A stretch of 64,000 nt of DNA, taken from positions 186,001 through 250,000 of the forward strand of contig JAFCMP010000046.1 in NCBI GenBank assembly GCA_017506865.1, given 5' to 3'. The translations under genes and the position numbers were made by a program. The notes below the pieces were generated by a model. It did not search any database, was not told the DNA's origin, and was given only the letters and a program-made list of their open reading frames with translations. Source of the stretch: Tribonema minus. Its lineage: Eukaryota > Sar > Xanthophyceae > Tribonematales > Tribonemataceae. This document shows, in pieces, positions 28 through 63,200 of this stretch (its first letter is position 1; every line of letters starts with the position of its first letter).

Positions 28-3000
28 GTACTCTCTGCGGCGTGCTTCCTGACAAAGATGCCATCAGCGCATCGCCTACGAGAGCTCTTTGACATACACG
101 ATGTTGATGGCGATGGAGTGCTGGGCTTCTGCGAATGCTTGCTGCTGGTGCGCAGCAGCCTGCACGTGCTGGCCAAGCTGACGCAGGGCAAGGCGCCGGA
201 GCCGGACCAGTTGGTGACAATCACAGAGGCCATCTTCAAAGCAAACACACAGGTGATGACGCAGCTGAAAGCTCACGCGTGCTCATTTTTACATGCCAGT
301 ATTGTGCCGCCTTGATCTCACCTGTGTCGCTAATTGCCAGATCACTTTGTGTAAAACGGCTGTACACAAGTGCAGCCAATGCTTTGAGCGCGATGCATGT
401 CCGCATGGCAAGTAGCCCTGTGGCGACATGTGGGACTCATTAACCATTTTGAGACTTGCTTTCAGGTGCATCCGCCTGCGCCATAGCCGCAGCACCGGCA
501 GCCGCTGCTGCGTCAGCAGCAGCAGCAGCAGCAGTCGACTCGGCGCGCCCGCCCCGCAGCGCCCTGCTCACGCGGCGCGCACTTCAACAGAAAAAGTGTG
601 CACATCTCACACACACGCCACTTGCGTACACTGTCACCGCGCAGCCGGCCGCTGCCGCCATCGGCATGGAGGAGTGGCTGTCGTTCTGCCGAGGCGACGC
701 CGCTGTCCGCGCCGCCGCGGCGCGCGTCAACTCGATCCTGTGCAGAAAAATGGCTTCCGTCTTCAAGCCCGGCGGCGGCGGCAGCGGCAGCGGCAGCGGC
801 GGCGGCGGCGGCGGCAGCGAGCTCAAGGCAGCATCGCTCGTGCGCATCGCCAGCCCCGTGCGCCCGGCGCCGTCGGTCCACAAGAGGCCGCGGCCGCAGT
901 TGAAGATGGGGCACGGCAGCGTGAGCAGCGCGTACGCGCGCGCGCCGCCCCCCGCCTCCGGGGGGTCGCGCCAGTGCAGGCTCACGCGGCAGCACAAGGC
1001 ACGTCGCTGAGAAGTTGTAGTTGTATGTGGACCTGTGTGTGGGCACAAAGGCGTGTACACTGATAGAGTGCAGGTGGCTGAATTGCGGTGCAGGCCGCCG
1101 GCACACGGCGTGCAGTCACGAGGTGCATGCATGGGGGTAGCATTTTGGAAATCTCGCCATCTTTCTGGATGCGTTCAGCTTTTGTGCTGGCAGCAAGCAT
1201 CTGCTCGATGCCAGCGGGGACACCCCTGCCGTTGAAGTTCACCCGGCCGAGCGTTGTTGAAGTTGTACAGGCCATCACCTCGCGCCAGAAGCGGCGCGCG
1301 CCCTCAGGCAGCGTGCCCAATCTGCTAAAGAATCTGTGCCAGTGATGCGCGGCGGTCCTGCCGTGCCAAGCGCGTGCAGAGCTGAGGCGTCTGTTGCCGC
1401 ATGAGGCGTGTGCTGACCCCACACAGACTGTTCCACGCAGTGCGTGCTGCACGGATGGACACAATAGTCTTTCTCGCACTGTGTTACAGCGAGCGCTGCG
1501 TAGCTGACGTGACCCCCCCCCCCTACTTCAACACTGTGCGCAGGACGCCGTGTTGAAGTTGCACGCGGTCTTCGCCGCGGCGGACAAGAGTGGCAGCGGC
1601 GTCATCGCTGCGGACACGTGGCACCGGCTCATGGGGCACGCCGCAGGGACGCTCAGCGCGTATGGACCGCAGGTGAACACTAACATAGGCGATGTCAAAG
1701 CGCTGAAACTGAGAAGAAGCACCATGATGTGCCTGCAGGCGGAGGCCGTTGATGTCAGAGCGCTTCCGCTGTGATGGATGCGCTGTGGTGTGGCGCAGGG
1801 ACTGTAAGCCCACGCGCTCAAGACTTGGGGGCGTTGGGCGGGCTACGAAAGCCACGCTGCCGCGTACTCAATTGCGCTCTGAGCATACATAGCGCTTCAT
1901 ACAACAATAAAACCATAGAAGGCATCGCGTTTCGTTGCACCAGCAATAGTCTTGTTGCAACATTGATAATCAGCTGGCAGCTGACCAGGTGCGCGTAACG
2001 TCAGCACGACACTCTACCTCAGCTTGCGGGCGAGCTCCAAGCGCGCTGAGCGCCTCCACCATTCCCGCATTACGCAAACCCAACACATGCTCTGCTCATC
2101 CGGTGCAGTGTATAAGAGGATAGTGCACTCACGCCCCCGCCTCCCCCCCCTCCCCCCCTCCCCCCCGCCCCCCCCGCGCAGCTCTCCATCGTGGACGTCC
2201 TGCAGGCCGCGTACCCCTTCGCCGCGGACGCGGAGATGGCGCAGATGCTGACGTGGATCAGCGACGCCAGCAGCAGCGCTCGGCACTGGACGCCCGCGCA
2301 GCGCGAGGACTTCCGCGAGCTGCGCAGCCTCGCCGAGACGGACATGGAGGACATTGTGAGTGGGGGGTCGCAGCTTGCATGTGACGCTCCTGCTATTAAA
2401 GTTGATGTTGATGTTTGGTGTTGCTTCCGCGAGCTGCGCAGCCTGGCCGAGATGGACATGGAGGACATTGTGAGTACACAGCAGGGGGAGGGGCTCGTCG
2501 TTGACATGGCAGATAAGATTCTGTGGGTATTGTAAGAGGGGGGGAGGGGGGCAGGCGCGCATGCGGCAGGGGGGGGGGACAATGCGTGCATTGTGACGCT
2601 CGTGCTGTTGAAGTTTGTGTTGAAGTTTGATGTTGAAGGGAGCGAAAGGCGTCGCAATTGGTTGAGGCGATGCTGGATGAGATTGATGGTCTGCCACAAG
2701 TTCATGTAGCAAGTGCTGTGCAGCGCGAGGACTTTCGCGAGCTGCGCAGCCTGGCCCGAGGCGGACATGGAGGACATTGTGAGTTGGGGTGTGTGGGGGG
2801 GCTTTGTGGCGTGTGGCGCTTCTCATGTTGAAGCTGATGTTACAGTTCGGGTGGTGAGAGGCGGGAAGGGGTCGCGATGATTGAGGCGATGGTGGAAGTT
2901 GATGTTGATGTTTGGTGTTGAGGGGCGGGAAGGCATCGCGATGATTGAGGCGATGCTGGATTGAGAGTGCACGTGTTCTGTCCCACAATGACGCAGTATA

Positions 3001-4610
3001 GCTGCTGCGCAAGTGGAAGTGCGAGGATGAGAGGCTACTGCTGATCAATGCTGTCACCGGTGGCGGGAAATTGAAGTTTCCAGCAGCAGCTGCCAGTGCA
3101 AGTGTCTTGATAGCAGTATAAGCGCACGCACCTCTGCATCATGGCATGGCATATGCTAGATGCGAATCGGCGGGGGCGGTGGCGAGCTGTGCAGATGACA
3201 CGGCAGAAACGTTTGAGCGAGAATCGCACAAGTAAGAGACTGTATTGCGTTGGGACCTCCCATGCTATGCCTCCTCAAATGGGCGTGCAACAAATTGTGG
3301 GGTTTTAGTCCAACATGCAAAGTGGCATCATATACCTTGACAGTCCTTGCTGCGTACATGGGAGCACTGCAAGTACCTTTATTGCAAGTACTTTACTGCA
3401 TTTTAAGTGCCGCCGTTCTACCAAGACCTTCATCACAGTAGCATCAGCAACAGCATGTAGCCTTTTTCTCAATTCACACTCACTCATGTCCGCTGCTGCG
3501 TGTGATGCCTCTGTGCCCCCCCCCCCCCCCCCCCCCCAGATGGTGCTGTTTGACATGTACGACGTGGACGAGCACGGTGAGGTGCGCGTCGGGGAGCTGT
3601 GCAGCGGCCTGTCGCGGACGCTCGACATACCACAAGACGACATTGCCAAGGTGACGCTGCCCGCACTCTTTGTATATAGCTACCTATATGCATATCATAT
3701 ATACTTCGAAGTATCGTGTTTTTATACATGTTCATAGTATAGGTGGACATGGGCAAGGTGATGCTCCGCTGCATACCTACTGCATGTGCTTCCAGCATGA
3801 GCGCACGTTGCGGACGCTCGTCATTGCCGCAGGAGGACATTGCCAAGGTGACGCTGCCAACACTCTCTATGTATACTTTGAGGTATCATGTTTATACACA
3901 GGTTCATAGGAAAGGTAGACGTTTCCAAGGTTAGGGGTAGGGTTAGGGCAGAGGAGGTTGAGCGTTGCGCACGCGCACCGCGCGGGGTCCTGTATCGGGC
4001 CACGCTTGTACATGGCCAGAAGGCGCTGCTCAAATGAGATGGTCTGTTGCCATTGCCTTGGCCCACTGAGGGGTCTCAAGCTGCGTGGGCAGGCTGCTGA
4101 GGACTTGTGGTTATACGCAATGTCCACAAGGTAGACCCGGGTGTTCGGTGTGTTTCTAGGGCTCATGTATCCTGTGTAGCATCCAAGACAACGTACTTCC
4201 AAGAGGCAGCAGTAAAGTGTCGCACGATAAACTTCTAGTGTGATCGCACGAGAGCGCAGTGCTGGGCCGCGCAAGCACAGCGCCAGGGGCGCAGACGATA
4301 AACGTAGCAGCGCTCAGCATCAGCAACGGGTGTGCGCGCCTTGTTTGTTTGTCGCCTCATACCCCAGCCATGCTACAGAGTATGCTTCGCAATCGCGTCA
4401 CTGCGCGTCATGCCTTCGTACTCATGCTCCTCTCCCCTCCTCGTAACGGTGCAGGTGTTTCGCAACGGCGGCAAGGGCGCGAGCGACTACATATCGGCGG
4501 AGGAGTTTGCGGACACGTTCAGCAAGCTCATGGCGGCGGATGCCGGTCTGTCCATCAGCAGCACGCTGCTGGAGCCGAGCGTAAGGGGGGCCAGGGCACA
4601 GCTGTGGTGA
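28..4610 (+). CDS. Multi-EF-hand calcium-binding protein (5' partial)
   Basis: Exons that keep one phase-0 frame: 28-252, 645-920, 1544-1672, 2182-2355, 3540-3650 and 4455-4580, the last reading on to a stop at 4608-4610. If the GTAAGG at 4581 is used instead, a two-codon exon ends at 4650. The first exon has a canonical EF loop (DVDGDGVLGFCE), the exon at 3540 another (DVDEHGEVRVGE), and the 1544 exon a degenerate one (DKSGSGVIAADT, Thr in place of the final Glu). The 645 exon has a helix of the kind that follows EF loops (EEWLSFC) and then Gly/Ser-rich sequence. An acceptor AG precedes base 28, so the start codon probably lies outside the window; the ATG at 58 is a less likely start. The protein is probably a Ca2+ sensor or the EF-hand tail of a larger protein. 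The family is not identifiable. A further small exon near 1270-1311 is possible. Introns 4 and 5 carry copies of the preceding exon end. Confidence 0.78.
2300..2790 (+). repeat. Exon end plus 5' splice site present three times
   Basis: The end of the EF-hand exon (2300-2355) with its GTGAGT donor recurs at about 2424-2475 and 2721-2786 within the following intron. Each copy spells the FRELRSLAE / MEDI segment and ends in ATT|GTGAGT. The first copy keeps the frame. The last has one extra C (ctggcccgaggcg) that breaks it. Spacers also share gttgatgttgatgtttggtgttg-like sequence. Confidence 0.85.
3515..3539 (+). promoter_or_regulatory. Pure-C polypyrimidine tract and 3' splice site
   Basis: A run of 23 C followed directly by AG forms the acceptor of the EF-hand exon starting at 3540. 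It is an extreme form of a polypyrimidine tract. Similar C-rich tracts precede the exons at 2182 and 48110. Confidence 0.7.
3618..3910 (+). repeat. Second exon end and donor duplication
   Basis: The end of the exon at 3540-3650 with its donor (gacattgccaag|gtgacgctgc) and about 90 bases of intron recurs at roughly 3823-3910. Both copies continue into a shared tail (tatacttyraggtatcrtgttt and gttcatag). A shorter fragment lies at 3743-3780. Confidence 0.8.
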
Positions 4611-4650
4611 AAGCTGCTCAAGTGCTTCTCGTATGGCCCTGCAGGGGTAG

Positions 4651-8835: not shown

Positions 8836-8837
8836 AG

Positions 8838-9050: not shown

Positions 9051-11251
9051 ATGCTGGCTCCAACGCGCTACCTCGTCTTCAGGGCCGTCCCAGCTCGCCT
9101 GAGCGCTAATGGCCTTCGCCCAAGCTTCAACCTTACTCGCACCCTGTCCAGCGAGGCAGAAGGAGAAGGCTCGTCCGGCACCATCAAAGCAGAGCACGTG
9201 AGCGGCGGCGGCACAGCACAGGACACTCAACAATCTCGCAGGCGCAGGGGCATGCGATCTGTCACTCCGGGCTCGGCTGGCGCCACGCCATCTGCGTCTC
9301 TCAGCCCCACGCAGAGGGGGACCTCGGTCAGGCGCCTCGCTCAGCCCGCCAGGGATCTACAGGACCTGAGGCGTGGATTCGACGACCTGTTCAGGGTAAG
9401 ACTCATCCCTGCTTGTCTACGGGTGGGCGCAGTAGCAGCTGTGGCTTGATGTGAGAGTCTTGGCTCATCAGAGTGTTGTTGCACCAGTCAGTGCTGCTTT
9501 CTGGATACTTGTAGGGCATTAGCACGGACAGCGCGCTGTGGCATCAATCTGCAGCTGCTGGCCTCTCACAAGCGCAGGAAAGGTGTTGCAGATTCGCACA
9601 ATCGAGCACCTTCAAGTGCTTCTTGAGGTTTCAACTGCGATCGCGCGGGCTCACATGCATGCCTACCCTCGACACTTCAAGCTGCTCAACCACGCTGAAC
9701 ACCTGCACCGGCCGTCTGTTTCATCTCCCATTTCACATGCTCTCCCCAGCCTCGTCTCACGCTCACGCGCTCTCCCCCCCACCCGCCGCGCCACGCAGTC
9801 CTTCGAGCAGGACTTCTTCGGCTCCCCGAGCCCCTTCCCGAGCGTCTTTGGCTCCCCGCTCGCGGGCTTCACGCCGTCCACCATACTGAGCATGCCGGCG
9901 CCGCCCGCGCTGCCGGCCATGAGCATGGATGTTCGCGCTACCGATGGCGCGTACAACATCAGCGTCGAACTGCCGGGGCTCGACAAGAAGGACCTGCGCA
10001 TCGAGGTCGACGACGAGCGCAACGCGCTCACGCTGACGGCGACGCACGTGAGTTCAAGTTGAAGTTGTGACGCGCCGTGCTGATGGTAGAATGGTGCGGT
10101 GGGCTCGGGCGGTGTGCGCGGCATCTGCTGCGTAATCCTCTTGCAACTTCAAGAACGTGCACCTATTGTTGGGGTACAGCAGTGCTGGGATAGTAGACCC
10201 TGCTCGGAGCCCTACTGACACGGACCTGTCACTGAACGCGCCCTGCGAATGCGTACCTGTAGCTGGACTAGGATTTGAGTTGACCCTGCAGGAAGTCTAC
10301 GCATTACCGCATGCGTTCTACGCAGGAGGAGAAGTCCACGGACACCGCACTTGCTGATGGTGTGACTCGTCAACATACGCTGCCGACATGTGCTCTCTGC
10401 AGGGATGGGAAGTAGACGCATTCATTGCGGCATCCGCAGTCCTCAACTTCAGGAAACTTCAAGAATGCGTGTCGGTCGTTGCATAGGGTTTGAGCTTACC
10501 CCTACGTGTCACGAAATTTGCTCTGCGCAGGAGGAGAAGCCGGCGGACACGTCGTCAGAGGAGGAGGAGGAGGAGGAGCCCGGCTACCTGCTGCGCGAGC
10601 GCTCGTATGGGCGCGTCACGCGCTCCGTCTTCCTGCCCGACGACGCCGACATGAAGAAGATACAGGAGGCGGAGCTCAAGGTGAGGCTGGGCCCCGGACT
10701 GTCAAGCAGTGACTCCCCCCCCCCCCCTCCTAAGCAGTAATTGGACCCCCTTCCCCCCCTGCTCATTGATTAATTGTTCTGCCATGGGCCGGCCTGACGC
10801 GGCGGATCTCAGCGCTCGGAGGTCACCATGTGGTTAGTTGAAGTTTGAATGGAACTTGAAGCATTGGATAATACGCAGTTGCAGGGCGTGCCTGACGCTT
10901 GCGAGCTGCGCGCAACGGCGGCGTTCGTGCACCTCAACGCGCCTCATGTTATAGACTGCAGCGCAACGGGAAGTAACTTAAGTTGAAGTCGCGGATTAAA
11001 TTGAAGCTCATCTGCAGCACCACTTCCGCCGCCCTCGCAGTTACCCCGAAGTACTTGGTGTGAGGCTCAGACTGGTGGCGAGTGCAAGCTGCACAGCGCA
11101 TGCACACGCCCGATGGTGTTGCCGCGACAACAATGAATGCCCAACCCCCCTCCGTCCCCCCTCTCCCCTGCGCCTGCAGGATGGCGTGCTCCACGTCATG
11201 GTCCCCAAGAAGGAGGAGGCTCAGACGACGCGCCCGCTGGAGATCAAGTGA
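9051..11251 (+). CDS. Small heat-shock protein (Hsp20/alpha-crystallin), probably mitochondrial
   Basis: Four exons, all introns phase 0: 9051-9395, 9799-10047, 10531-10680 and 11180-11251, giving 271 aa. The N-terminus is Arg/Ser-rich with no acidic residue for about 33 residues (MLAPTRYLVFRAVPARL), typical of a mitochondrial transit peptide; plastid targeting is an alternative. The alpha-crystallin domain starts near residue 155 (YNISVELPGLDKKDLRIEV). It continues with ERSYGRVTRSVFLP in exon 3 and ends with DGVLHVMVPKKE, the family's usual signature, in exon 4. An insert with seven consecutive Glu lies in the middle of the domain, at the loop before the ERSYG strand. The protein acts as an ATP-independent holdase chaperone. 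A heat-shock-element-like site lies upstream. The acceptor side of exon 3 has a copy upstream in the intron. Confidence 0.95.
10271..10553 (+). repeat. Acceptor plus exon-start duplication in the Hsp20 gene
   Basis: The real exon 3 start (tttgagcttaccc...cgcag|gaggagaag, about 10485-10553) has an upstream copy at 10271-10350. The copy keeps the AG acceptor and the first codons (cgcag|gaggagaagtccacggacac). The copy is not an open exon beyond a few codons. Confidence 0.75.
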
Positions 11252-11257
11252 AAAAGC

Positions 11258-12929: not shown

Positions 12930-15900
12930 TCAGTCGCTTTCGCTCAGGAGGTCGATGATGCCGCCGCCTTGTTCACTGCTCTCATACTCGGACCCATCCT
13001 GGTCTTCGCTGTCGCTCTCTGCTGCCTGCGGCGCCGCTGCTGCCCCCTGCTGCGCAGCATCGCCCTCCCCTTCGCTGCCGCCTTCCTCAACTTCCCCCTC
13101 TTCGCCGCTTGCTTCCTCATCCCCCTCGCCCCCTTCCACTTCCCCTTCTTTGCCGCTCGCTTCCTCGCCGCCCTCGCCCGCTTCCACTTCCACTTCGTCC
13201 CCGTCGTCCCCTTCAACTTCCCCTTCTTCGCCGCTCGCTTCCTCGTCCTCCTCGCCCCCCTCCACTTCCCCTTCTTCCTCTTCCTCTGCTTCATACTCCC
13301 CCTGCCCCTCCCCCTCCCCCTCCTCTGACTCTGACACTTCGTTTTCATCAGCGCCTGCCCCCCGGCCCGCCTCAACGTCCCCCTCCCCTTCGCTCATGGC
13401 TTCCCTCTCCTCCCGCTCTTCTCCCTCCGTGGCCGTGCGCTCACCGTCAACAGTGGCATCTTCGCCGCTGCTGGCCTCGCCGCTTTCAGTGCCGCTTTCA
13501 TCCTCGGGCTGCGATTCCTGCTGCTGCTGCTGCTGCTGCTCCTGCGGCACCAACTCAGGTGATGACCGCGCTTCGCTACATGTTTCGCGCTGTCCCTCAA
13601 CGTCCCCCTCATCGTCATCATCTTCCGTTGCGCTGCATTCTGCTGGTTCGCCATCCTCCGGTTCAGCGTCGACTGCCTCTTCCTCTTCACCCATACCCCC
13701 CTCCCCCCCTTCCCCTTCCCCTTCCCCTTCAATATCCCCTTCCTCCTGCTGTCCCACATCCCCCTCCCCTTCCCCTTTAATTCCCCGTTCCTCCTGCTCT
13801 GCCACCCCCCCCTCCCCTTCCCCTTCAATTTCCCCTTCCTCCTGCTCTCCCACGTCCCCATCTCCTTCCCCTTCCCCTGAGGTATCACCTTCCCCCTCTT
13901 CCCCCTCCCCGTCCTCCTCCTCCTCCTCCTCTTCCCCCTCCCCACCCCCGTCACCTTCCCCCTCGCCTCCCACATCAAGGTCATCGTAGAGCACGTCATC
14001 GTCAACGAGCTCCTCCTGACACGCATCATCGCGTGCAGCATCGGCGTCGCCTGCATCCGCTGCGCCAGCCATCGGCTCCTCCGCAGCGAGCTGCAAGCCG
14101 CTGCCGTCAGCGGGCGCCAAGCCGATGCTGCTGCCGCTGGCGCTGCGGCTGCGGTCGGCCGCTTCGCCGCCCGCTGCGCCCTCCTCCTCCTCCACGTCCA
14201 TGGACGCGTCGGCAACGGCTTCCTCCTGCGAGTCGGAGTCGGAGTCGGACACTGCGACCGCGTCGTCTGCATCCTCAGGCATCATAGATATGTCCATGGG
14301 CTGCAGGTCCGCATCCGCCGCCTCTGCGGGGTCGTCGGCCTGAGGCGACTCCATCTGCCGCGATGACGCGTCCGCAGCAGCGCTCAGCCCCGCGCCGCTG
14401 GCGCCTGTCGCGTACGGCTGCTCAGCGTCCCGCAACGCATGCGCTGCCGCAGCGGCGCTGTCAGAAGCCGCATCAAGAGGTTCGTGCTGCGCGTCCTGCA
14501 TCGCGATGTCTGGCGGCGCCGCCTCAGCAGCGCTGGCGGCCGCCGGCCACGGTACCGCTGATGCTGCTTGCGGTGCCGTGCCTGCCGGCAGCGTTGCTGT
14601 CCCCGCAACTGTACCCGCCGGCGCTGCTGCGGGGACAGCGCCGCCCGCCGATACCGTAAATGCTGCTTTGCCCGCTGCCGCGTCGTTTGGTGCCGACACG
14701 GCAGCTGTCGGAATTGCCGGCATCGCCAGCGCGCCGTCGTCTTGCAGTGCCGCCCCTTCTCGCACAGAGTCTGCACCGATGGCCGAACGCTGTGCATGGT
14801 CCGCACGCGGCGAATGTTGCGCGCCTTCCGGCGCCGCCGCTGCGGCCGCTTGGGCGTCTGCGGCGTTCGCACCCTGCAGCACCAGCGGCAGCAGCGGCGG
14901 CGGCGCGCCCTTCTCCGCAGCAGCGGCAGCGCACGATGCCGCCGCTGCCCACGGCACCACCGGCGCAACTTCGGGGGCCGCCGGCGCCGCAGCCGCTGCC
15001 TCGGATTCGACTGCTGCCGCTGCCGGGTTTGCGTGCATGTCCGGGGGTGGAGGCGAGTGCGCAGGCGATGCCGCCGCGCCTGCGTCAGTGCTCAAGCTGG
15101 CAGCAGCGCTCAGATCGCCGGCCTCGAGGATTATGAGCGCGATCCTGCGGCGGATGACGGGGATGTCCGCCTGCGAGAAGTCGAGCGGGTGCCCCGCGTG
15201 CAGCCTGCGCAGGAGGAAGAGCGTCACAGTTGCGGTTGGCTGCTGATGGGAGCGTCGCACGTGCAGTTCGCTGCTGGGCAGGCAGCGCTGCGCGTGAAGC
15301 ACCGTGTGTGACGTACACTGGCGACACTGAGTAAGAGCTGAGACACCACAATTAGGGCACTGAATGCAGTGCAGCGGATGCTTGAGCGCAATGCTGCCCG
15401 CACCGTCAGCGCTGTGCGGCAGCCATGCGCATCAGCGAACGGCATTGCCGATCACACCAACGCACACCATGCAGTGCACATGGCGCAACCTCAACCACAG
15501 GGCGTGTCATGTCACTTCGACTCCTCATGCCCGGCACAACACACTTCTCAACACTTCTCAGTGCAGAGTGTCCGAGACAGCCCGCGACACGACTCCCGCG
15601 TTCACGGGAGCGCAGGTCGTCAGCACCGCTCAGCGACCGCACCTGTCGATCATGGCGAGCATGAAGGCGCCGCAGTCCACGCCGTTGGCCTGCTGCGGCA
15701 CGCCAGCCGCGTTGCGCCGCCGCGGCCACTGCGCCACCTGGCGTGGCACGCACAGCAATGAAGTGGCGAGCGATGATGCGGATATCAGCTACAGCAGCAG
15801 CGCAGCTCACGCAGCGCACATGTGCGTGCGTCCCTTCCATGCTTCTCGAGCAACACCGAGACGTGAGACGTCTGCTGCCGCGCCGCGGCGCCGCTGCCAC

Positions 15901-18900
15901 CGCGCGACCTTGCGGCAGCGGCGCGTGCAGACGGGCGAGTGCGACGGCACATGTGTGTGGTGGTTGATGGGAGGCGCACTCTGCATGTATTGTTCAAGTT
16001 GCAAATTCAACTTCAAGTTGAGGTGTCGCGCCGCGCCGCCGCGGCCACCGCGCCACCTCTGCTTGTCAAGGTACACGATGGCTGCCTGGTGTTGGCAATG
16101 CAAGGAAGCTTTACTGCTTCCGAAGATGCGAACCTGTGGCAGCCTCGCGTGCAGAAGTGCAAGTGCGACGGCACATGTGTGTGGTGGTTGATGAGGGGGG
16201 CGCTCTGCATGTATTGTTCAAGTTGCAAGTTCAATTTCAAGTTAAGGTGTCGCACCGCGCCGCCGCGGCCAGCGCGCCACCTTCCGGCAGCGGCGCGTGC
16301 AGAGGGGCAAGTGCGACGGCACATGTGCGTGGTGGTTGATGAGGGGCGCGCTCTGCATGCATTTGTTCAAGCATCAAGTTCAGAATCAAGTTGAGATGTG
16401 GCTTGTACCAGTAGCCGAGCCACATGGACCGGCACATGCGTGGTGGTTGATGTGCGTCGCGCTCTGCATGCATTTGTTGAAGTGTCAAATTGAATTTGAA
16501 GTTCAAGTCGAGGTGTGGTAGGTATTCCCTCAGTGCGTGCGGCTCGTAATGCAGTAGCGAGTCACATGGACGGGCTGCAGGCCACGCCCTGCCGCGGCGC
16601 GTGGCGCGATGAGGTGTTGAGCACTGATGCGGACATCAGCTGCGGCAGCAATGCAGCTCACGTAGGCGCACATGTGTGCGTATGTGTCCCTTCTTTTGCG
16701 GAGTTTGAGGGAGCGGCGGTGGTGCACGTGCGGCGCTCGCCGTGCGCCGATTCGAAGACCGAAGAAGGGACGTGCACTCAAACAACACCACGTGTTTCTC
16801 CAGGACCGCTGAGACATCAAAGGTCTGCTACTGCTGGCGCATAGCCGACGTTCACTCGCGACCTGCTGGGCAGCTCGGTGCATAATGCTTCCCCTGCGCT
16901 GTTGCAGCAGCCATGCTGCCAACCCGCACTGTCACTCTGGAGCAGCAGCTCAGCTAAATGGCCCTGATTTTCATGATGATCCTCAACAGTGGAGCAGGCC
17001 CCGCGCATCGCCCAGTTGGACGTGACGCAGGGTCAGTTGTGAACCACCAGCGATGCGACGCGCATTCGGCATGGCGACCGTGGCGCTTGCTCATTGGAAC
17101 AGCACCAATTTCAGCAGAACACAAACGCAAGCGCGCACGCGTGCGGCCGCTCGACACGCACCTCCGGCCACGGCTGCCCGTGCCGCGCCTCCCGCTCGTC
17201 GCTCGCAAAGCGCGCCAGATTGTCCAGCACCTGCGGCAGCTCTCGCTGCAAGCTGCGGCAGTGGAGGGGGGGCGGGGGGGGGGGGGCGGGGGCAGCGCTC
17301 AGCAACACACAGAAGCAGCGCGTTTTTGTGCGGGTGGAATAACCCCTCGTGATGTGAACTTGAAGGAGTTGCTCGCACTGCGGCATGTTGCTGTTGAAGT
17401 GTCCAAAGGCCCACAAAAGTGGTGATTGCGGGCATGCATTGCGAGCCCGCAGCTGCTAGACATTCTGTGATCACTGCACCTATTCTGCAACCACTTAGAA
17501 GTTTGTAACAACACTTCCGCAACACTGGAGCAAGGGCTTCTCAAACAAAAGGCAACCATTCTGTGGTTCTTGCATTGTGTTGCAGCCAGAACTGCCAAAC
17601 TCCGCTTTGGCATTCAACAGCACCACTCTTTAGATTGCACATTGCACCCTTGCCACGGGCCAACGACGGCATCAAGTGCGCACCATGCCAAACCCAAACC
17701 CAAACCCTATCTCTCACCTTGACCCTAATCCACAGCGCGCGATGACTTTAGACTGTGCATACATGCTCAGGGTGAACCTGGCTGATATACACCTCGAAGT
17801 ATGTACACATGGTGCAGGCGGCAGCGCTCGCACCTGTCGTAGTACTCCCTGCGGCGTTCAACAGCAACATTGTTAAGATTGCATACATTGAAGTATACGA
17901 CATCGAGTGCTTGCTATGCAACCTTCAGCTCACATCGACTCTGAACCGAATATACATACATACAAGGTGAAGCTAGCTTATAGTACGTACACATGATGCA
18001 GGTGGCAGCGCTCACACCTGTCGTAGTACTCCATGCACGCGCCCGCAAAGTTGACAACCGCGACCGCCCAGTGGCTGCGCCCCGCGTGCACGGGCACGAT
18101 GAGCCGGTCGAGCGCTGCCACGTCGGCGCCGGCGCGCGTCAGGTAGCGCCGCACGTCGTCGTAGCTGCAGCGCTCAGCACAGGGAACGGCAACACGCAGA
18201 GCGTTGGTGGGGCATCACATGTTGCGGGGAAGCGATGACATGCGTGCACGGTCAGGTACCGCAGGGGTGCAGAGACACTGTCGCAGCGAAACGACGAATA
18301 CACACATGCGCGCCGTGCTGCGCGCCGAGGCGGCGGCTGCGTCAGGCGAGTGGCAGTGCTCCGGTGGTCACCGTTGCCCTGCCGATGGTGCATGGCGCGG
18401 CGCAGGGTCGCAGCGCCGTTGTGGGCGGGGCGTGCAACGGAAAGCGCCGTGCAGGGAGCGCAGCGGCGGCGCGGCGGCAGCACAACTCAGCACCCCGGCA
18501 CAAACTGCCGATCGAGAGGGACGCTGTGCAATGAGCGTTGCGGAGGCAACCCCATGTTGACCCTGAAGCTGCGTAGGGGGCGTGCACATGTGCCATGTAA
18601 GGGGCGGCTTTCCGCAGAACTGAGCAATGATGATCTCCGTGCACGTGTGACTGGCAGCATGGCAGCAGCGGCAGCGGCAGCAGCAGCAGCAGCAGCAGCT
18701 GCAGCAGCAGCGCGCGCACCGCACATCGGCGCTGGCCCGTCGGCGCTGGGCAACGAGCGGCGGCACGGCGAATGACCTGCCAGCAGGCGTGCGGACGCTG
18801 ACGCACAGGCGCTTAGGGCCTAAAGATAGGGTTAGGGACGACGGAAGTGCGCCGGCGCGTGCGCTGCGTGCGCAGACGCGCGCATTTCCCGCGTCAAGGA

Positions 18901-40500: not shown

Positions 40501-43500
40501 GGCTCTGGTGCGAGCGGGTTGCGCTCCCGTTCCTGCACTGCTGCAGCGATGCTCAGCGGACGGACCGCTTAGGCCGCCTGCCGCCTACGCCCGCGTGCCT
40601 CGTAGCATCTGCAGTCGTCCCACATGCTTGAGAATGAGATGGCTGTTGTGCACGTGTACTTGCGCCGCGCTCATCCGCGAAATGCCGTGGGGTTTTGGGC
40701 CGTCGCGTTCAAACGGGGGCTTGCACAGAGGCGTGCAGCACCAGCGCAGCAGCAGCACTCTGCGTGCCGCCACCGCTGCGGCTGCTGTGCGCGGGTGCAC
40801 CGTCCCGCTTGGCTGCTGCTGCGGCGCCGCCGCCCACCCGCCGCTGCCGCCGCACCTCGACTGGCCGCCCACTCTCACCTCACATACCGATTGGTATCGC
40901 ACAGCATGTGCTCTGAGAGTGCTTGGCAGCAGTGCTCAGCTCGCCACGCCCCCGCCGCCGCTGCTGCCGCCGCCGCCGCCGCTGCTGCTGCTGCTGGTGC
41001 CGCGCAGGCCGTCGCGGCGGGGCGCGCCGTCGCGCTGCGCGGCGCGTCCGCGCTCGCGTGCGGCGCGCGCGGCGCCGGCAAGAGCACGCTGTGCCGCTAC
41101 CTGGCGAACCGGCTGCTTGCGCGACACGCCGCCATCGCGTTCATGGACTGCGACGCGGGGCAGCCGGAGCTGACGCCGCCGGGCATGGGTGAGGCGCGGC
41201 TCTTGTAGTTGAAGTTGAAGTAGTATATTGCGACTGCGTGCGTGGGTGGGTGGGCGTGTGGGCGTCAGCGCTGCGGCGGCTGCTGCCGGTCTGATGTGAT
41301 ACTCTGTGACTGTTTTTACCTCGAAAGAGTTGTCACCGACTGTGTGTGTGTGGATGGGGGCATGAAGCGTGCGTCAGCGCTGCCTCTGCTGGTGGTGGTG
41401 CTGGTGGTAGCGCTGCGGTGCCGCCGTGGTGCGGCCGAGGCGCGCCTCGACTGTGGTGCGGGGCATGGCAGCTGACGCCGAATCAAGCTTCGGCGTGCAT
41501 TCCCGGCACATGAGCGTGTGGTGACGAGCTGCATGCGCCAAGATCGTCTCGATCAGGCTGCTGCGCTGGCTCTCACGTACTGTGTGCTCTCGTTACACTG
41601 TGCTCTCTGGTTTCTGGCCCAAGCACCGGCAGCTGCGCCAAGGCTGCTTCAATGCACCAGCTCTCACATGTCATGTGCTCTCATTACATTTGTGCTTTCT
41701 GGCTCGGGTCCTAACAGCTGCGCCAAGGTTATTTCAAAGAGCCTGCTGCACCGGGTCTCACGTACCATGTGCCTTACTGCCCCCCCCCCGCCCTCCCCGC
41801 CCGCCGCAACCAGTATCAGTTCACATACTCAGGAGGCCACTGCTGGGCCCGCCGAACACGCACCTGCAGCACCCGGCCCTCACATTTCATGTGCTCTCAT
41901 TACGCCGTGCTTTTAGCGCAAGACCCAGGTGCGCCTATGTTTTTTCGACAAGCTACTGCACAGTCTCACGCATCATGCCGCCTTCATGACACCCCCCCCC
42001 CCCCCCCCCCGCCCTTCCCCTTTTCCTGCGCGCCTCAACCAGTATCAGTTCACATACTGCGGAGGCCCCTGCTGGGCCCCCCGCACACGCACCTGCAGCA
42101 CGCGGAGGTGTCCTTCTTCCTGGGCTCCTCTTCCTCCAAGGTGAGCGCTTACATCAGCCCAGCCAGGTTGATGCGCACGCGCAGCAGAGGCTGCGCCACC
42201 GAGAACCCCAGTACTCTCTTTCGCAGGAGCGTGTGCCGTCAATGTCGCACTGCATCCAAAGAAACTGGCGCTCCGTTGAAGTTGTTGAAGTTCTGTACAA
42301 ACACAGCTACAACGCTGAGCCTAGTAGCTCCAACCTTCGCTTGCCGGCACATTTGCAACGTCGAACGGCACATTCGCAACGTCGAACGCTGCTAGGGGCA
42401 TCATCATCCGCGACACCTTCTGCGTGGCTCGCTGCCACCGCTTGCAGCACATGTTCAAGCAGCGCTTAAGGGAGAAATGAGCGCATTCCACACTACGCGC
42501 GACCCACGCCGCCGCGAGTGAGAGCCTCCTTGTCACGGCATGCAGCCGTGTGAACCGACCCTGTCCACTGACCTCGCAAATTAGCATTTGCCATCTCATT
42601 TTCCCGCGCCGGCAGGCTGCGCTGCGCGCGACACCCATTTGTGCGAACGACCCTGACGATCGACGTTATGAGTGGCATTCGCCATCGCATTTTTATGCCC
42701 GTACAGAAGGAGCCCAAGCCGTACAGCATGCGGCACACGTACATCATGTGAACAACCTCTTCACGTGACCCTATGAAGTGGCATCCGCCATCTCATTTAC
42801 CGCGCCGCCAGGCGGAGCCTGTGCTGCACAGAGCTATGAGTAACCAAGTGACCCAAGCCCAGGTTTTTCTTGCGACACTCGTGCATGTGAACGACCCTAT
42901 CAATTGACTTTACGAGGTAGCACTCGTTGTCTCATTTACCGTGCCGGTACGCGGAGCCCACGCTGCATAGCGCAATGACTCATCAAGTGACCCAAGCCCA
43001 AGTTTCTCGTGCGACACTCGTGCACGTGAACGACCCCACCATCTGACCTTATGAAGTGACATTCGCCATCTCAATTACCGCGCCAGCAGGTTGCGCTGAC
43101 GTTGGACAGCGCGCAACACACATGCGTGTCAATGATCCCATCGATTGTGCTCCCATCCAGAATACGTCAAGTCCTCAAAACGTTGTGAAGTAGCATTTGC
43201 CATCTCGTTTATCGCGCCGCCAGGCGGAGCCAATGCTGGACAGCGCGCGCCACACGTGCGCGTGAACGATCCCAGCATGTGTCCTCCTTTAAAGTGGTAC
43301 AAACTTTCAAACGTCATGCAGTAAAAACATATAAACGTTGTGAATTCCGCCATCTCCTTTACCGTGCCGTCAGGCGGAGCCCATGCTGTACAGCGCGCGA
43401 CAGGCGTGCGCGTAAACGATTCCATCGATGGGTCGCACGCGTGGAAGCGATCCCATCGATTGTGCTCCGCTGAATACGTAAAGTCTCCGTTGTGAAGTAG

Positions 43501-46500
43501 CATACGCCATTTCGTTCACCGCGCATGCAGGCGGAGCCCATGCTGTACAGCGCACGCGTGCGCGCCCTCGCCGACTGGTACCGCGCGCACGCCTCCCACC
43601 TGCCGCTCGTGGTCAACACGGACGGCTGGGTGAAGGGGATGGGGCACGAGCTGCTGGGCGCGATCGTTGACGTCGTCGCACCCGACCACATCTTTCAGGT
43701 ACTATGATTTACGAAAACGAATCAAAGAATCGTAGGGCTCTAGATGACAAGGAGTGGTTAGCCGCAAGTGCCTTCCACCAATAACAGAGGTCGCCGCTGC
43801 GGCAGCATTGACCACGAGTCAAACAGTGCTATCATACCCGCAGTAGTCAGAAGACTTCTGTGTGCAAGCTTTTAAGCGTCCAAGGAATATATACTTTGAA
43901 GTACCTAATTGTCAAGTCATTATCTCCGCATGACACTCTAGACCGCATGCGCCGATGTTGGCAGTTCCGAAGATCAGTACTTTGACTCCAATAATCAAGC
44001 GTTGACGTCGTCGCACCCGACCACATCTTCCAGGTACTTCAAGTACTATATGTAGTGACCACAAGCTCACGACAACAGCCCCATATATACCTTGATGAAT
44101 ATGTCGATGCAAGTGTACTTAACTATCTATTGATAAATGTTGCCTGTCACATCTTTCAGGTACTGTTGTGAGATCACGCCGTCGCGACGCGGGCCCCGAA
44201 TGTGCCTTGAATGCATACTCTATGGTGGTGCAAGTGCTCAAGCATCGATAATATCGCCCGTCACGGCCGCGTGAGGATGCTGCAGTGGGTGCTCGACGAC
44301 GGCTGCGAGGTCGACGACGCAGCACGCGAGGGCACGGCCCATGGCGGCCCGGTAGGTAGGTATCTTTGCTGCAGTACCTGGCGTGCAGGGGGGTTTCCAG
44401 GGGGCGCTGCGTGCGAGATCGCGGCGCGCTACGGCCGCATGCCGCTGCTGCTCACTGGCGTGAGCTCGGCGAAACGGGCACTGGTGGCTGAGCGCTGCCG
44501 GGCGCCCCTTCCGTGCAGCCGCCTCGCACGCGCTGGCATCAGACGGCGCGCCGTGCTCGCGTGCACTGCGCGGCAGCGGCATGTGGCCGTAGTGCGCCGC
44601 GACTGCGCAGGCCGTGCCTCACGCGACCGACCCCCCTGCGCGCCAGGCACTGCAGCGCTGGCACCTACATGCCTGGTCGCGACGGGCCGCGCCCCGCGCG
44701 CGCTGCGTCGTCTATGTCGCAGTCGCCGTCGAGGACCCACTGCAGCATCCTCATCTAGCCGTTGTGCTTGCCGTTGCAGCAGGGTTAGGGTTAGGGTTAG
44801 GGTTAGGCGTCAGCCGGCGCCCTCGCCGTGAAGGTGCTGCAGCGCGTGCAGGCGGCTGTGGCGTGCCGCCGCGGCGCACGCCTCTGTCCACAACAAATCG
44901 TAACAGCTCACTGGCCTAAACTGAAGGCGCTTTTTCAATTCTGTTCGCATTCTAAAAATCTGAACGTTGAATGTCGCGCGCCAAGCTGCGCGGGCGCGTC
45001 AGGAGGAGAACGTCGCCTTTCGCCGCAGCAGATGCGGCCACGCGATCGACCACCAGGCAGCCGTAGCCGGGGACCAGCCCATGACTGCGTGGTTGGTGCT
45101 TGTTCGCATACGCGAGCTTGATTGGTGTCGGCGCCCCACGGTGTCGGAGGGTGCGCGCTGCGCAGCAGCAGCATGACGTCCAGCTGCCTGCGCTGGCCAG
45201 TGGTGTCGCATGAGTCGGCTGCGCTTCCTGCGTCAGGCCTCCGCTCGAGGGCTGCACGCACAAAGGCGACCCTGACCATGCGCAACGGCCGCTTTTAACA
45301 TGCCGATTGTCCACGCAAAGCTGCTCTTAAGGGCGCGCCCATGCTCACACGCATCTGAAGGCCATACCCCAATTGTCGCTTTCTGCCGCACAAACCAGCA
45401 GCTTGTGTGGGTCGCCACAATCACTCAGCACTGCTCCGCGAGCGACTTGCGCTGCCGATCGCAGTTGACATGTGCACAACCGGCAGTTCTGCCGACACTG
45501 CGGCAAGACGCAGTCTCACAACAGCCCACAACAACCTGAAACTGATCCCGCGCGCTGTCGACTAGCGCTGGCCATCGAGTTTGCAGCTGGTGGTCGCGAC
45601 ACACTGGCACAGGAGTTGACGGTCGACCCACATGTGCTAAACCCTGACCCTAACTCTAAGGAATTGATGCTGTTCCCTGGCGCGCTCGCGTCCCTCATTC
45701 GTGATGGCTTGGAGTTAGGGTTAGAGTCAGGATTAGGGCAAGAAGTGTCATAAAATGATCATTTTGAACCTGCTGCTTTTCCCTTGCACTCTCGCATCCC
45801 TCACTCATGGCTTCAGGCTTGAGGGTGAGGGTTAGGACAAGAGGCGTCATCGCGGTGACCTAAACCTATTCCCGATCGTGCTTTTTGCTCACGCTTTTTG
45901 TTGATGTTGCAGCTGATGGGCGCGACGCCTGCGCGCTCGCCGCTGCTGGAGCGCGTCCCGCAGGGCTGCCGGTGAGTCACCCGCCGCTTCAAGCTGCAAC
46001 TTCACTTTGTTCAACGTCGCTGTCACGATCAGCAACAAACGGCACCTCTGCCACCACACGTAATGCATATCTTTCCAGTGTCAGGTACAATGTAATCTTT
46101 CATTAAGCACACGAGGGCTGCTGGCCAGCGAGCGTCAAGGCATCTAAACACTTAAAGTTGAACATACAGAACCCCCCTGGCCATTAGATCAGCCGCCTCA
46201 GCGCATGCATGCAGACGCTCCATTGTGGGCGCGCAGCGCCAGCACCTGTCTGTGCGAAGCCTCTGCATCGTGTCTGAACCGATGTCGCCCAGGTGCGTTA
46301 CCATCACTTCACCATTCCCCACTTTGCATAAGGTGACCGGAGCCATGGTGACAGTGTCACCATAGCGTGCCTGAAACGCTCTGAGGTGTCTGTGCTGGTT
46401 CTCTACACAACGCAGAAGCTTACTTCCAGCATGCGTACCGGGCCTCACTTGTAGCGATGCACTTTCGGGCAGAGGCTCGGAGAAGCCCGGTCAAAAGTGC

Positions 46501-48418: not shown

Positions 48419-48458
<40 letters not shown>

Positions 48459-50410: not shown

Positions 50411-50495
50411 GCGTGATTGGCAAGTGCCGGCCAGCCGGCGGCTCAGATGCAGAGGAGTGAACGCGGTGTATAGCACGCAACACAAATAAGCCCCG

Positions 50496-56160: not shown

Positions 56161-56939
56161 TACTTGTCGACCGCCGCCGCCGGTCCGCAATCGCTGTCAA
56201 TAGTTTTTGTCATTTACAAGTGGCATCCAGCCATGAAATTCACAGCTACCACAAGTTGTAGTTGCCCCGGGCGGCCTTCAGGCGCAAAAAAATCCTCTGT
56301 CACCTGCAACCGCTCCTCATACGCTCGCGTACCAAAACTGAAGTTTTCACGTCGTTGTGCGCTGGCCGCAGGTCAGCGTCTGAAGTTTCGACATGTGTGT
56401 CCTCACCCTGTGCTCTGCTCTGGCTGCAACGTGTACTCCACAGGCTGAAGATGTGAGTGTCGGTTCCACCGCGGATGAGTCGCCCACACAGGTAGGTCTA
56501 TTTGTACGGCATCCAAGCCCAGCAAGGCGACAAGACCCACTGCACAGCTCCGTGAAAGCCTCATTGGCAACGCAGCAGCAGCAGCAGCGGAGCTATTCAG
56601 GCCGGGGCTAGAATACTTCACAGCTGCCTCGGTGAAGGAAAACAGCCGGATCACCACGGATCACTAGGCGGTGAAGTGATAGGCTCACACGCTGACAGAG
56701 AGCTTTAATTTCACCTTAGACAGATTCACCGGGTGACGCGTGTCATCTTGACACGTGTCACACGCTCGTCATTTCGCACGGTGGAGGCACGCCCCGAGTC
56801 GCCGCCTTGCAGTCACCGTCATGCAGCGCCACGGTGTGCAGTAGATCAGGAAGCAGCTCGCAAGCAGGCTATTTTAATCGAGGTTGGTGGCATCAGCGAT
56901 CGTCCAAACCTGGACCTGCACCTGCACTTGGAGAAGATA

Positions 56940-57600: not shown

Positions 57601-57779
57601 ACGACCTGCATTCGAACATGTTCTGTGTGTCAAAAACTTGAGTTTCAAAACCGAAACCACCTACTGAGTGAGGGCAGTGTCGACGGCAGTGGCAGCAGCA
57701 GCACCAACAGCCGCACAGCGAGCAGCAGCAGCACTTAATCGGCCTTCGCATCAGAGCAGCAAGGTCACAAGCGAAGAGG

Positions 57780-59977: not shown

Positions 59978-60257
59978 CTAGGACTGCTGCGACAGGGACT
60001 GCCACTCCGCCACTGCTGCGCGCGCCGCCCGCAGCCACCTGATGTCCCACTGCAGCACGCTACCGCTGCCGCGGCTGCCGCCGCCGCCACCGACGCCGCC
60101 GCGCCGCGCCAGCAACGCTGCCACCCCCGCCCTCGCCACCGTCACCACGACGATGAGCATCGCGAGCCGGTCCCACCGCAGGCGCCGCCGGTGCTTGGCG
60201 GAGCGCCGCCGCCGCTGCTCCTTGAGCAGCCGCGCCGCCGTGGCGCTGCCGCCGCCG

Positions 60258-60288
<31 letters not shown>

Positions 60289-63200
60289 TGGGCCGCAGCC
60301 GCGTCGCCGCGAGCACCGTCGTCATGGCGGCGCGCAGGCGCGTCCTCCGCGGCGCGGCGGCAGCGCGGCGCGCTGCGGCGGCGCGCAGCATGCTCGCGCG
60401 CGCCGCGAGCGCCGCGCGCGCGGCGGCGGCGGCAGCGCGCCCCCAGCGCTTGTAGAACTTCTGCAGGAAGCGCGCCGTGACGCCCGCGGCTATGTACCAG
60501 TTGAGGGCGCCGGCGCGGTAGACGGCGACGAGGAGCGCGCAGTGCGCGCACAGGGCGCCGACGAGGAGCGCGAGGCGCGCGCGCGTCTGCGGGTGCATGA
60601 CCGTGTGCGCGAGGACGAGGTCCACGACGATCTGCGCAGGGGGACAGTAGGACGCGACGGGGGGGGGGGGGGGGGGGGGGAAGGGATGAGCAGCGCTCAG
60701 CAGCAGTCCACAACAATCTGTGTGGGGGACGGGGCGCCAGGGGGTGGGGGGGTGGGGAGGGTGATGAGCGGTGCTCAGCAATAGTGGCGCAGCGGGGGGA
60801 GCGCGGTGGCGTGCGCTGCGGCAGCGGCACACTTCGGCGACTATAGATCATGGCCGCAACTGCAGGAGGCGAGGTTTGTGGGATCACCGCGGTCGACTGC
60901 AGCCCCAACGCGGGTGCGGAGGCGGCTGCGGCCTCGGTTATCGTGTTTGACGCTTGCGATTCTCAGTAAGCCATGTGACGTCCGCAGAAGGCGTTGCACC
61001 AGTGGCAGGCACCGGCGCAAGAGCAATCGCCTTCCCTCCGTTCATACTGCAAGAACTTCACCGCTGACCACAGTACTGTCAAAATCATCATTCTGGTAGC
61101 AAAATTTCAAGGACCTTCCTTCCCCTTCAGACTGTGCATCTCGCTGCACTTGAGCATTACCACACCGGTGACGCTCAGCAGCAGACCTCCTATCACTTTG
61201 CCGGCGCGTGCGACGAATCGTGAGCAACATTCCACACCACCTTGGTACGGTGCGAGCGGCGCTGCTCTGCGACCGATTTGCGCTTTCAGCTCGCCAGGGA
61301 TGCGAGCTTCGGCAGCGCGTATGGCGCGAGCTGCGTTGCCGCTCGTCAGCGCTCAACACGGCCGCTCCATCAGCCGTGCAGCGCCGCCATCGGACTGCTT
61401 TCCCCATCACAGTACGCGCGAAGCGCCGCCGCGTACACTGCCCAGCGCTGCCGGCGCGCGCTGCCGCGGAAGCAGCAGGTCACTCATAGGGTTGCAAGAA
61501 AGCGTATTTCAAAGTTTGTTTCCGAGTTTAAGTGCCCCTTTTGTGGACTGTTGCTTGGACTCGAGCAGACTCACCCCAAGCCCCACAAATACGCCCTTCG
61601 CGCAGCACACTGTCATATTGAGGTGTGCTCAAGACGTACTCCCGGGTGCCAGATCCGCCCCAAACACGCTGCATCTATGTGGCCGAATATACGCTTTCGT
61701 GTCGTGCCACCTGGAACTGTATGTGCGGCCCGCTGCGGTTCAGCACGACCTCGCCGAGCAGCACACTGATTTCCCCACCACAACGCGCGCAAACCGCCGC
61801 CGCGTAACACCGCCGCAGCAGCACCGCCGGCGCCTCGCTGCCGCACCAAACAGCAGCCCACTCACCTTGTCCACCTGAAACTGGATGTGGGGCCCGCTGC
61901 GGTTCAGCACGACCTTGCCGAGCGAGTTGACGAGCCCGCTGAACTTGCGCTGGTTCTCCAGCTTCTCCTCCACGCTCAGCAGCGCCTGGTCCGCCGTCGA
62001 GCCGCGCAGGCTGAACGCCGCGCGCTTCTCGCGGTACGCCGCGGCGCGCTTGCGCGGGCACAGCGGCGCCTTCTCCTTCCCCTTCTCCGCCGCCCCATCC
62101 GCTGCCGCCGCGTGCTCACCCCCCTCCCCCTTCCCCGCCCCCTCAGCCCCCTTTTCAGCCCCCTTCCCGTCCGCCTCCGCGCCGGCATCGGCGGCATCAT
62201 CGGCAGCATCGTCCTCTTCTTCTTCTTCGGCGTCGGTTGCGCTGCCCGTAACGGCTTTCTCCATCTGCGACGAGCCGAGGCAGCGCTCGGCGGCCCTGTC
62301 GATGTCGTCGTCGTCGTCGCTTGCGTACGCGGTGGTCTGGCGGATGCGGCGGCGGTTGCGATGGCGGTGACAGCGGCGAAAAGGGCCACGTCATCAGCCT
62401 TGCCGCGTGTACATGTGGTGACGCGCGCTCTATGGTTACGGTGGGCAGAGCAACACTTAAACATGCCGTGCCGCCAAGCACAAACGTCATGACATCTGTG
62501 ACGCAGCTGCACTCAAGCGCCAGCTGTCGCCAGCAGCCGCTGCTGCCGCCATCAACACGCACGCACATGCGCACTGCATCACCGCCGAGCAAGCGCTGCC
62601 GCAAGCTCTGCACTCACCAGGCTGCTGCCGCTGCCGCCGCTGCCGCCGCCGCCGCTGTCGCCCGCGCTCGTGCCGTCGCGCCACAGGTCCAGCGCAGCGC
62701 GTGCGCGGCCGCCGCCGTGCTCATCGGCCAGCGCAGCAGCAGCGGTCTGCCGCCGGCTATCGCTCGCCGCTGCCGCCGCCACCGCAGCAGCGGCGGTCGC
62801 GCTGCCGTTCGCGTCGGCTGCTGCGCCGCCGCTGTGCGCGCTCGCGTAGGCAGAGGCGGCGGCGTTGCGCACCGTGGCGAAGGCGGCGGCGGCGGCGGCG
62901 GCCGCGGGCGTGTGTGCGCGCGCGTGCACCTCTGCTGCGCGGCGGCGGCGGGGCGAGGCAGCGCGTGAGATAGGGCTGCGGGTGCGAATGTTGCATGCAA
63001 AGTGAGCGTGCGCGCTGTCGCTGCGGCGGCGTCGCAGCCTGCCCATCACGCTTGCGCGCAGGGGCGACGGTCGTGGTGGTGCGGAGCGCACGGTGCAGTG
63101 TCCACGTCTGCGTGGGTGCCTTGTGAACCTGCGCACTGCAGAACCCGATTCAGGCAGTGGCCAGCATGGCGTGCGACGCACGCAGCGCTGCCGCGGCACG

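What the first reader, a model, noticed from the sequence alone, without database searches (positions are those of the whole stretch)
2300..61926. Introns repeatedly contain tandem copies of the adjoining exon edge and splice site
Seen directly in at least five genes on both strands: EF-hand (exons ending 2355 and 3650), Hsp20 (acceptor at 10530), Ulp1-type (donor of the His/Asp exon, acceptor of the Cys exon), NOL9-type (acceptors of exons 5, 6 and 8, donor of exon 6, stop region) and the right-edge gene. Each repeat starts or ends within the coding exon and carries the GT or AG into the intron. Random intronic repeats would not so often straddle junctions. Inference: introns here expand by tandem duplication across splice junctions, or junctions are favoured breakpoints. 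The result is ladders of alternative or decoy splice sites.
Basis: partly seen in the sequence, partly recalled or inferred. Interest (0 to 1): 0.82.

Follow-up and report, generated by a model that had tools for sequence, protein, structure and literature searches.

The report
Introns carrying copies of exon edges
In the yellow-green alga Tribonema minus, introns have repeatedly grown by short local duplications that often run across the exon border and leave decaying copies of exon edges and splice sites inside introns; in the sample studied the borders are not preferred targets, so this looks like ordinary duplication at a high density.

Summary
The repeats are real. Junction copies in the EF-hand, Ulp1 and NOL9 genes are clear (best 83-97% identity); Hsp20 is weak; the right-edge copy stops 5 nt short of my modelled donor. 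The window lies in Tribonema minus. In 344 kb annotated with a self-trained gene model there are 390 local repeat pairs; the first 264 kb gave 230, its Markov shuffle none. Copies lie in the own intron of 35 of 139 donors and 22 of 137 acceptors, against 2 of 139 and 0 of 137 for reverse-complement probes.

Junctions are not over-represented: intron-interior stretches are copied as often (24-28 of 114-137); 49 of 332 junctions are covered against 42.2 +/- 5.4 with rotated boundaries (54 of 400 as high). Random duplication of 60-100-nt units simulates similar rates.

Copies look neutral: 31 of 86 shifts in frame, 30 of 38 indels frame-breaking, though a third-position excess leaves weak constraint open. 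Four of six units are local apart from one short hit; two carry interspersed repeats. One public protein model splices from a copy; use in RNA is untested.

The parts
2182..2355 (+). EF-hand gene exon; donor at 2356
   Evidence: gene model; tblastn of Tribonema protein P0121
2424..2475 (+). first intronic copy of that exon edge plus donor; the public protein P0121 reads on to about 2469 and so splices from this copy
   Evidence: 96% over 52 nt; shift 114; P0121 alignment
2720..2789 (+). second intronic copy of the 2355 exon edge
   Evidence: 93% over 70 nt; genome search finds these three copies and no others
3540..3650 (+). EF-hand gene exon; donor at 3651
3807..3875 (+). intronic copy of the 3650 exon edge and donor
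   Evidence: 83%, shift about 196
10317..10345 (+). weak copy of the Hsp20 acceptor edge at 10531
   Evidence: 86% over 29 nt, 35.6 bits; not among the hits
10531..10680 (+).
   Evidence: gene model
15643..15737 (-). Ulp1-type gene exon; acceptor on its high-coordinate side
15876..16282 (-). ladder of copies of that acceptor edge (about 15879, 16027, 16251) within an array
   Evidence: family D17; shifts 171, 319, 543
17798..17852 (-). copy of the donor edge of the Ulp1-type exon 18018-18164
   Evidence: 91% over 55 nt
18018..18164 (-). Ulp1-type exon (Peptidase_C48 match of the surrounding reading frame, E 6.3e-4, 20.1 bits, just under the curated cut-off of 20.7)
41780..41876 (+). copy of the acceptor edge of NOL9-type exon 42049-42140
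   Evidence: 84% over 105 aligned nt
42745..43435 (+). array in the NOL9 intron; several members match the acceptor edge of exon 43531
   Evidence: its last unit finds only local matches in the genome
43531..43698 (+). NOL9-type exon; most likely ends at a donor, not at a stop
   Evidence: tblastn of P0122 and P0123; sequence
44000..44038 (+). copy of the donor edge of exon 43531-43698 with GTACT
   Evidence: 97% over 39 nt
61707..61759 (-). copy of the end of right-edge gene exon 61866-62336; ends after CAGGTGG, 5 nt short of the modelled donor
   Evidence: 92% over 53 nt; sequence

Best explanation
Introns of this alga accumulate short local direct duplications. The duplicated segments fall at about the same rate inside an intron and across its two borders. 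Those that lie wholly in an exon, or that swallow a whole intron, change the protein and are lost (inferred). Those that cross a border are silent as long as the outermost donor or acceptor stays in use, so an exon edge with its GT or AG is left behind in the intron, where it decays neutrally. Repetition makes ladders. Shown: the copies, their rates, their locality and a substitution pattern close to neutral. Inferred: the molecular step (slippage or end-joining tandem duplication) and the continued use of the outermost site.
For: 390 local pairs in 344 kb; 230 in the first 264 kb against 0 in one Markov-2 shuffle of the same. Copies of donor edges in 35/139 and acceptor edges in 22/137 own introns, against 2/139 and 0/137 for reverse complements, 1/84 and 1/93 for deep exon probes, 4/104 and 3/111 for exon probes 45-100 nt from the border. 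Intron interior equal (18-21%); rotation test 49 of 332 against 42.2 +/- 5.4. Simulation of random duplication with 60-100-nt units gives, in one of two settings, donor .24, acceptor .21, interior .21-.32, exon -100..-45 .038 (observed .25.16.18-.21.04 and .03). Real-to-copy mismatches: codon positions .082/.076/.172 and intron side .194, i.e. 2.4 times positions 1+2 (bootstrap 1.96-3.23), where about 2 is expected if only the live exon is constrained; 8 of 38 indels in the exon-like part are multiples of three. Shift length in frame in 31 of 86. Whole-genome searches of six units: EF-hand 3 matches, NOL9 acceptor 3, right-edge 1 (itself), all local; L024 donor unit 3 local plus one 37-nt match on another contig; the Ulp1 and TRIC units carry interspersed stretches, with the exon parts matched only locally among the scored matches. 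Copies are 74-100% identical in the exon-like part (86 copies), too diverged for assembly echoes in most cases.
Against: Homologous stretches are often shorter than the spacing of copies (length/period quartiles between 0.28 and 1.01 over five identity classes), so many copies are not clean tandem units; unit size inferred from exon reach (60-100 nt) is smaller than the spacing (broad, mostly 60-220 nt). With 60-220-nt units the simulations put .08-.26 at the exon -100..-45 probe against .03-.04 observed (eight settings); with 60-130 nt .03 and .09. Nearer copies are not clearly younger (14 ladders against 9, one tie, P = 0.40). Third-position excess: real-copy ratio to positions 1+2 is 2.17 (1.72-2.71), above the roughly 1.7 that I reckon for a free copy of a constrained exon; between copies 1.64 (1.30-2.33) or about 2.3 in the larger set. 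Copy-to-copy mismatch at positions 1+2 is below the intron side (ratio 1.82, 1.32-3.0); copies taken one after another from the live exon would give 1-2, weak constraint would too. Stretch C1 has none (0 of 28 junctions). The genome search did not report the known local copy inside the right-edge query, so it is not fully sensitive. Exon borders come from my own gene model, without RNA.
Confidence: 0.7

Rival explanations
1. Junctions are favoured breakpoints: duplication starts or ends preferentially near splice sites, for example through a transcription- or splicing-coupled process.
For: Donor edges slightly above interior (coverage .21-.23 against about .13-.17; 35/139 against 18-21%); sliding null 36 against 20.8; exon-side reach of the nearest copies is short (median 47 nt against 84 for uniform breakpoints, Kolmogorov-Smirnov P 3e-7).
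Against: Fisher P 0.39 for donors and 0.35 for acceptors against one interior probe, 0.86 pooled; rotation test 54 of 400 at least as high; acceptors are at or below the interior rate; short reach also follows from short units and partly from copies of 60 nt or more being called exons by my model.
Confidence: 0.12
2. The copies are functional: alternative or decoy exon edges kept by selection.
For: The public EF-hand protein P0121 uses the second donor, adding 38 residues in frame; third-position excess in real-copy (.172 against .082/.076) and copy-copy comparisons (.205 against .107/.141.207 against .084/.099).
Against: Frame of shifts random (31/86), indels mostly frame-breaking (30/38), synonymous fraction .45 real-copy and .38 copy-copy; random single changes alone give .26-.30 and adding the live exon's own silent changes gives about .44 by my arithmetic. 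P0121 may be a gene-model artefact of the kind that misled my own model.
Confidence: 0.12
3. Copies are insertions of a dispersed intron-borne element (introner-like) that brings splice sites.
For: Two of six searched units contain interspersed stretches: a 115-nt family (38 scored matches elsewhere, 1568 first-look candidates; 14 hits in the 344 kb) and the Ulp1 array unit (39 scored matches elsewhere at 78-84%).
Against: In both, the exon edge lies outside the dispersed stretch; of the other four units, three match only themselves and local copies and one has a single 37-nt match elsewhere; 12 of 390 local pairs match elsewhere in the 344 kb; none of the 11 hits of the 115-nt family labelled intronic ends at a modelled splice site, the nearest being 30 nt away.
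Confidence: 0.04
4. Assembly artefact: collapsed or echoed reads.
For: A few copies are near-identical (for example two perfect 62-nt units at 31549-31675).
Against: Junction copies are mostly 78-98% identical with codon-position structure in the mismatches, which read errors would not be expected to create.
Confidence: 0.02

Closest known systems
Internal gene duplication (Gao and Lynch 2009; title seen only as a reference in PMC3443670; content recalled; paper not held)
   Same: segments inside a gene, exonic and intronic, duplicated in place
   Different: here mostly short segments left as decaying copies inside the neighbouring intron; density measured per junction
Tandem genomic duplication as a route to intron gain (reviewed in PMC3443670, passages read)
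   Same: tandem copying of sequence that carries splice-site motifs
   Different: there a new intron is made between two copies of an exonic AGGT; here an existing intron is lengthened
Introners (PMC9860276, passages read)
   Same: repeated sequence in many introns
   Different: introners are transposable-element families that create introns; the exon-edge copies tested here are local and gene-specific
Minisatellites crossing an exon border (recalled)
   Same: tandem units, some including a splice site
   Different: units larger and more diverged; copy-number variation not tested

Membership tests
Internal gene duplication | duplicated segment lies inside one gene, copies in the same orientation | tested here: met
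   direct copies within the own intron at 57 of 276 junctions against 2 of 276 reverse-complement probes
Internal gene duplication | copies are gene-specific, not a dispersed family | tested here: met
   six units searched in the whole genome: three local only, one local plus a single 37-nt match elsewhere, two with an interspersed stretch but exon parts matched only locally; the search skips very common words and scores only the best candidates
Intron gain by tandem genomic duplication | donor window matches acceptor window of the same intron (intron bounded by the two copies) | tested here: not met
   6 of 166 introns reach score 30 against 2 of 166 controls, so 160 do not show it; the two best lie between near-identical predicted exons, which I read as copies called exons but cannot tell from gained introns
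Introner | many introns share one dispersed sequence whose ends coincide with splice sites | tested here: not met
   11 hits of the dispersed 115-nt family labelled intronic, none ending at a modelled splice site; exon-edge copies local
Minisatellite / VNTR | head-to-tail units | tested here: inconclusive
   ladders with fairly regular spacing exist but homologous length is often well under the spacing
Minisatellite / VNTR | copy number varies between individuals | not testable with these tools
   one genome only

The most novel reading that the evidence does not exclude
Tribonema introns are a standing archive of past exon edges: about a fifth of junctions carry copies of their own exon border, each a snapshot of the exon at the time of copying, and a part of these copied splice sites is still spliced, so that the choice of the outermost site can be studied with natural, closely similar competitors in the same transcript.
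Probability: 0.15. Interest if true: 0.7.

Novelty: new member of a known kind. Interest (0 to 1): 0.42.

Why it matters
About one junction in five in the sample (57 of 276) has one or more similar copies of itself in its own intron, most of those aligned there still bearing GT or AG (63 of 69). That is a natural experiment on how the spliceosome picks the right site, a warning for gene annotation (the public EF-hand protein, and my own model, both seem to take copies for exon), and a measured example of introns lengthening by local duplication. I had no second eukaryotic genome to say how unusual the density is.

Tried and rejected
Self-BLAST of whole stretches seems to lose repeats close to the diagonal; replaced by short windows. 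A re-alignment meant to give exact copy extents matched many pairs to themselves (period 0); I use only its rows with a real period, as pointers. The pair-based sliding null counts dependent pairs; replaced by probe and rotation tests. A nucleosome-like unit length was considered from clusters near 113-127 and 156-171 nt; the histogram is broad. A ceiling of about 80 nt on exon reach (9 of 86 copies with 71 or more aligned exon bases, whose probe was capped at 90 nt): it may be short units and annotation bias, so I do not claim it. probably lost copies with short shifts through masking. A stronger conservation of exon-like parts than of spacers, first seen by eye (note), shrank under symmetric ascertainment but did not vanish.

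Papers: I saw search listings and passages of PMC3443670 and PMC9860276. In the listed titles and abstract openings I saw nothing on junction-crossing copies in Tribonema introns; the listings are capped and I opened no Tribonema paper.

Rows dropped before counts: local repeats with strong short-period self-similarity; exons under 60 nt or with coding score of 5 or less (3 or less); introns under 200 nt (profile) or 150 nt; low-complexity probes; copies with under 24 aligned exon bases or under 15 aligned bases on either side.
Full report
WHAT THE WINDOW IS. The window is G000:C46:186001-250000 of a 158-Mb assembly. A protein search with the EF-hand gene returned one hit, P0121, JKP88DRAFT_262017 of Tribonema minus, 93% identical over 99% of the query, on a contig of 1,512,779 bases, the length of C46. 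I take the organism to be T. minus, a yellow-green alga.

ANNOTATION. No RNA and no official gene table were at hand. I trained a two-strand gene HMM on the window, its flanks (together C46:136001-300000) and C1:100001-200000, then retrained with eight 10-kb stretches from eight other contigs picked because they hold DEAD-box helicase exons, so not at random. It gave 43 genes and 258 introns; between confident exons there are 166 introns, median 642 nt. Consensus: CAG|GTGAGT donors and C-rich GCAG|G acceptors. Two homologs, P0122 and P0123, support most NOL9 exons between 38138 and 50229; some ends differ and an exon at 49346-49414 was missed by my model. P0122 fills nearly all of a 2,392-nt contig, so it looks transcript-derived (inference).

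THE OBSERVATION. The example that shows it best is just right of the window: a minus-strand exon ending at 65651 has three copies of its last 37-48 nt plus GTGCGC in the next 550 nt of intron and a shorter piece 860 nt away.

IS IT MORE THAN CHANCE? Local repeats: 204 pairs in C46 and 26 in C1, none in one Markov-2 shuffle of either; the shuffle was not done for the eight helicase stretches. Over all 344 kb there are 390 pairs. They cover 19.7% of intron, 8.9% of exon and 5.8% of other sequence ('other' includes missed genes). Junction probes of 45 exon and 10 intron nt find a copy in the own intron for 35 of 139 donors and 22 of 137 acceptors; the reverse complement for 2 of 139 and 0 of 137; exon probes deeper in for 4 of 104 and 3 of 111 (45-100 nt) and 1 of 84 and 1 of 93 (70-125 nt). 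The threshold was the 99.5th percentile of 1650 scores against introns drawn at random from the same set.

ARE JUNCTIONS SPECIAL? Probes from inside introns do as well: 24/136, 28/137, 28/136, 26/129, 26/128, 24/114. Pooled, 57/276 against 156/780, P = 0.86 (the interior probes are not independent). Rotating the exon-intron map within each gene gives 42.2 +/- 5.4 covered junctions against 49 of 332 observed; 54 of 400 rotations reach that. Results the other way: 36 against 20.8 in the first, pair-based test, donor-edge coverage .21-.23 against .13-.17 deeper in, and a short exon-side reach.

NEUTRAL OR USED? In 42 junctions with copies aligned on both sides, mismatches between live edge and copy are .082.076 and .172 at codon positions 1-3 and .194 on the intron side; 8 of 38 indels in the exon-like part are multiples of three. 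In one search, 31 of 86 shifts are multiples of three; GT survives in 36 of 40 aligned donor copies and AG in 27 of 29 (11 and 6 copies not aligned there). Most of this fits a free copy of a constrained exon. Two things do not fit perfectly: the third-position ratio of 2.17 (1.72-2.71) against about 1.7 by my arithmetic, and the third-position excess between copies (1.64, 1.30-2.33, in 17 junctions; about 2.3). Copies taken one after another from the evolving live exon explain part of it; weak constraint or uneven mutation rates are not excluded. The one sign of use is P0121, which splices from the second EF-hand donor. My own model called a dozen or so apparent copies exons, so a public model doing so is weak evidence.

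LOCAL OR DISPERSED? Six units were searched in the whole genome. EF-hand (3 matches), the NOL9 acceptor unit (3) and the right-edge unit (1, itself) are local only. The L024 donor unit has three local matches and one 37-nt match at 95% on contig C98. The TRIC donor unit (TRIC by my recognition of the predicted protein; not searched) contains a 115-nt interspersed repeat and the Ulp1 array a stretch with 39 scored matches elsewhere, both with exon parts matched only locally. 12 of 390 local pairs match elsewhere in the 344 kb.

MECHANISM. A forward simulation of random tandem duplication, with loss of events that change the protein and neutral decay, gives donor, acceptor and deep-exon rates close to those seen when units are 60-100 nt (two settings; one fits, the one with more substitutions gives about half the rates). 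With 60-220 nt it gives too many copies reaching deep into exons. Yet the spacing of neighbouring copies is broad, mostly 60-220 nt, and the homologous part is often shorter than the spacing. So the exact unit, and whether later insertions and deletions widened the gaps, is unsettled.

GENERALITY. Junction-spanning copies occur in 8 of the 9 stretches that had testable junctions: C46 19/174, L024 4/10, L025 6/14, L026 4/10, L027 1/8, L029 1/4, L030 4/20, L031 4/6; C1 0/28. L028 contributed no junction. The C1 gap is unexplained.

AFTER CHECKING. Because the third-position ratios are now weighed openly, confidence in the neutral reading went from 0.72 to 0.70 and in functional copies from 0.10 to 0.12.

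VERDICT. A real and dense pattern that can be explained without a junction-specific process. Known kind; the density and the ladders of similar splice sites deserve a follow-up with RNA.

Noticed in passing
L011:4303-4417 (window coordinates 88303-88417) and 43719-43828: A dispersed repeat of about 115 nt: 14 hits in the 344 kb, eleven labelled intronic and one more (43719-43828, labelled 'other') in what homologs make the NOL9 intron; 1568 first-look candidates genome-wide. Possibly a SINE or MITE.
   Followed up: partly
C1:100001-200000 (L014-L023): Few local duplications (3% of bases against 12% in C46) and none at 28 junctions; GC 55% against 60%.
   Followed up: no
31549-31675: Two perfect 62-nt units in an intron of my model with a 3-nt overlap at the break: probably a very recent tandem duplication.
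   Followed up: no
53096-53752 and 56400-56564 (minus): FkbM-type gene: transcript-derived protein P0001 joins an exon at 56400-56564 to one starting near 53750 and lacks 20 residues present in the genomic exon; the missing 60 nt do not look bounded by GT-AG.
   Followed up: partly
44781-44807: AGGGTT x 4.5, telomere-like, inside the NOL9 intron.
   Followed up: no
3516-3537 and acceptors generally: C-rich tracts before acceptors, here a run of C directly before AG; G at position -4 in 69% of model acceptors.
   Followed up: no
assembly C1:129631-130231 (joined C1 stretch 29631-30231; L016/L017): A perfect 300-nt tandem pair: recent, or an assembly echo.
   Followed up: no
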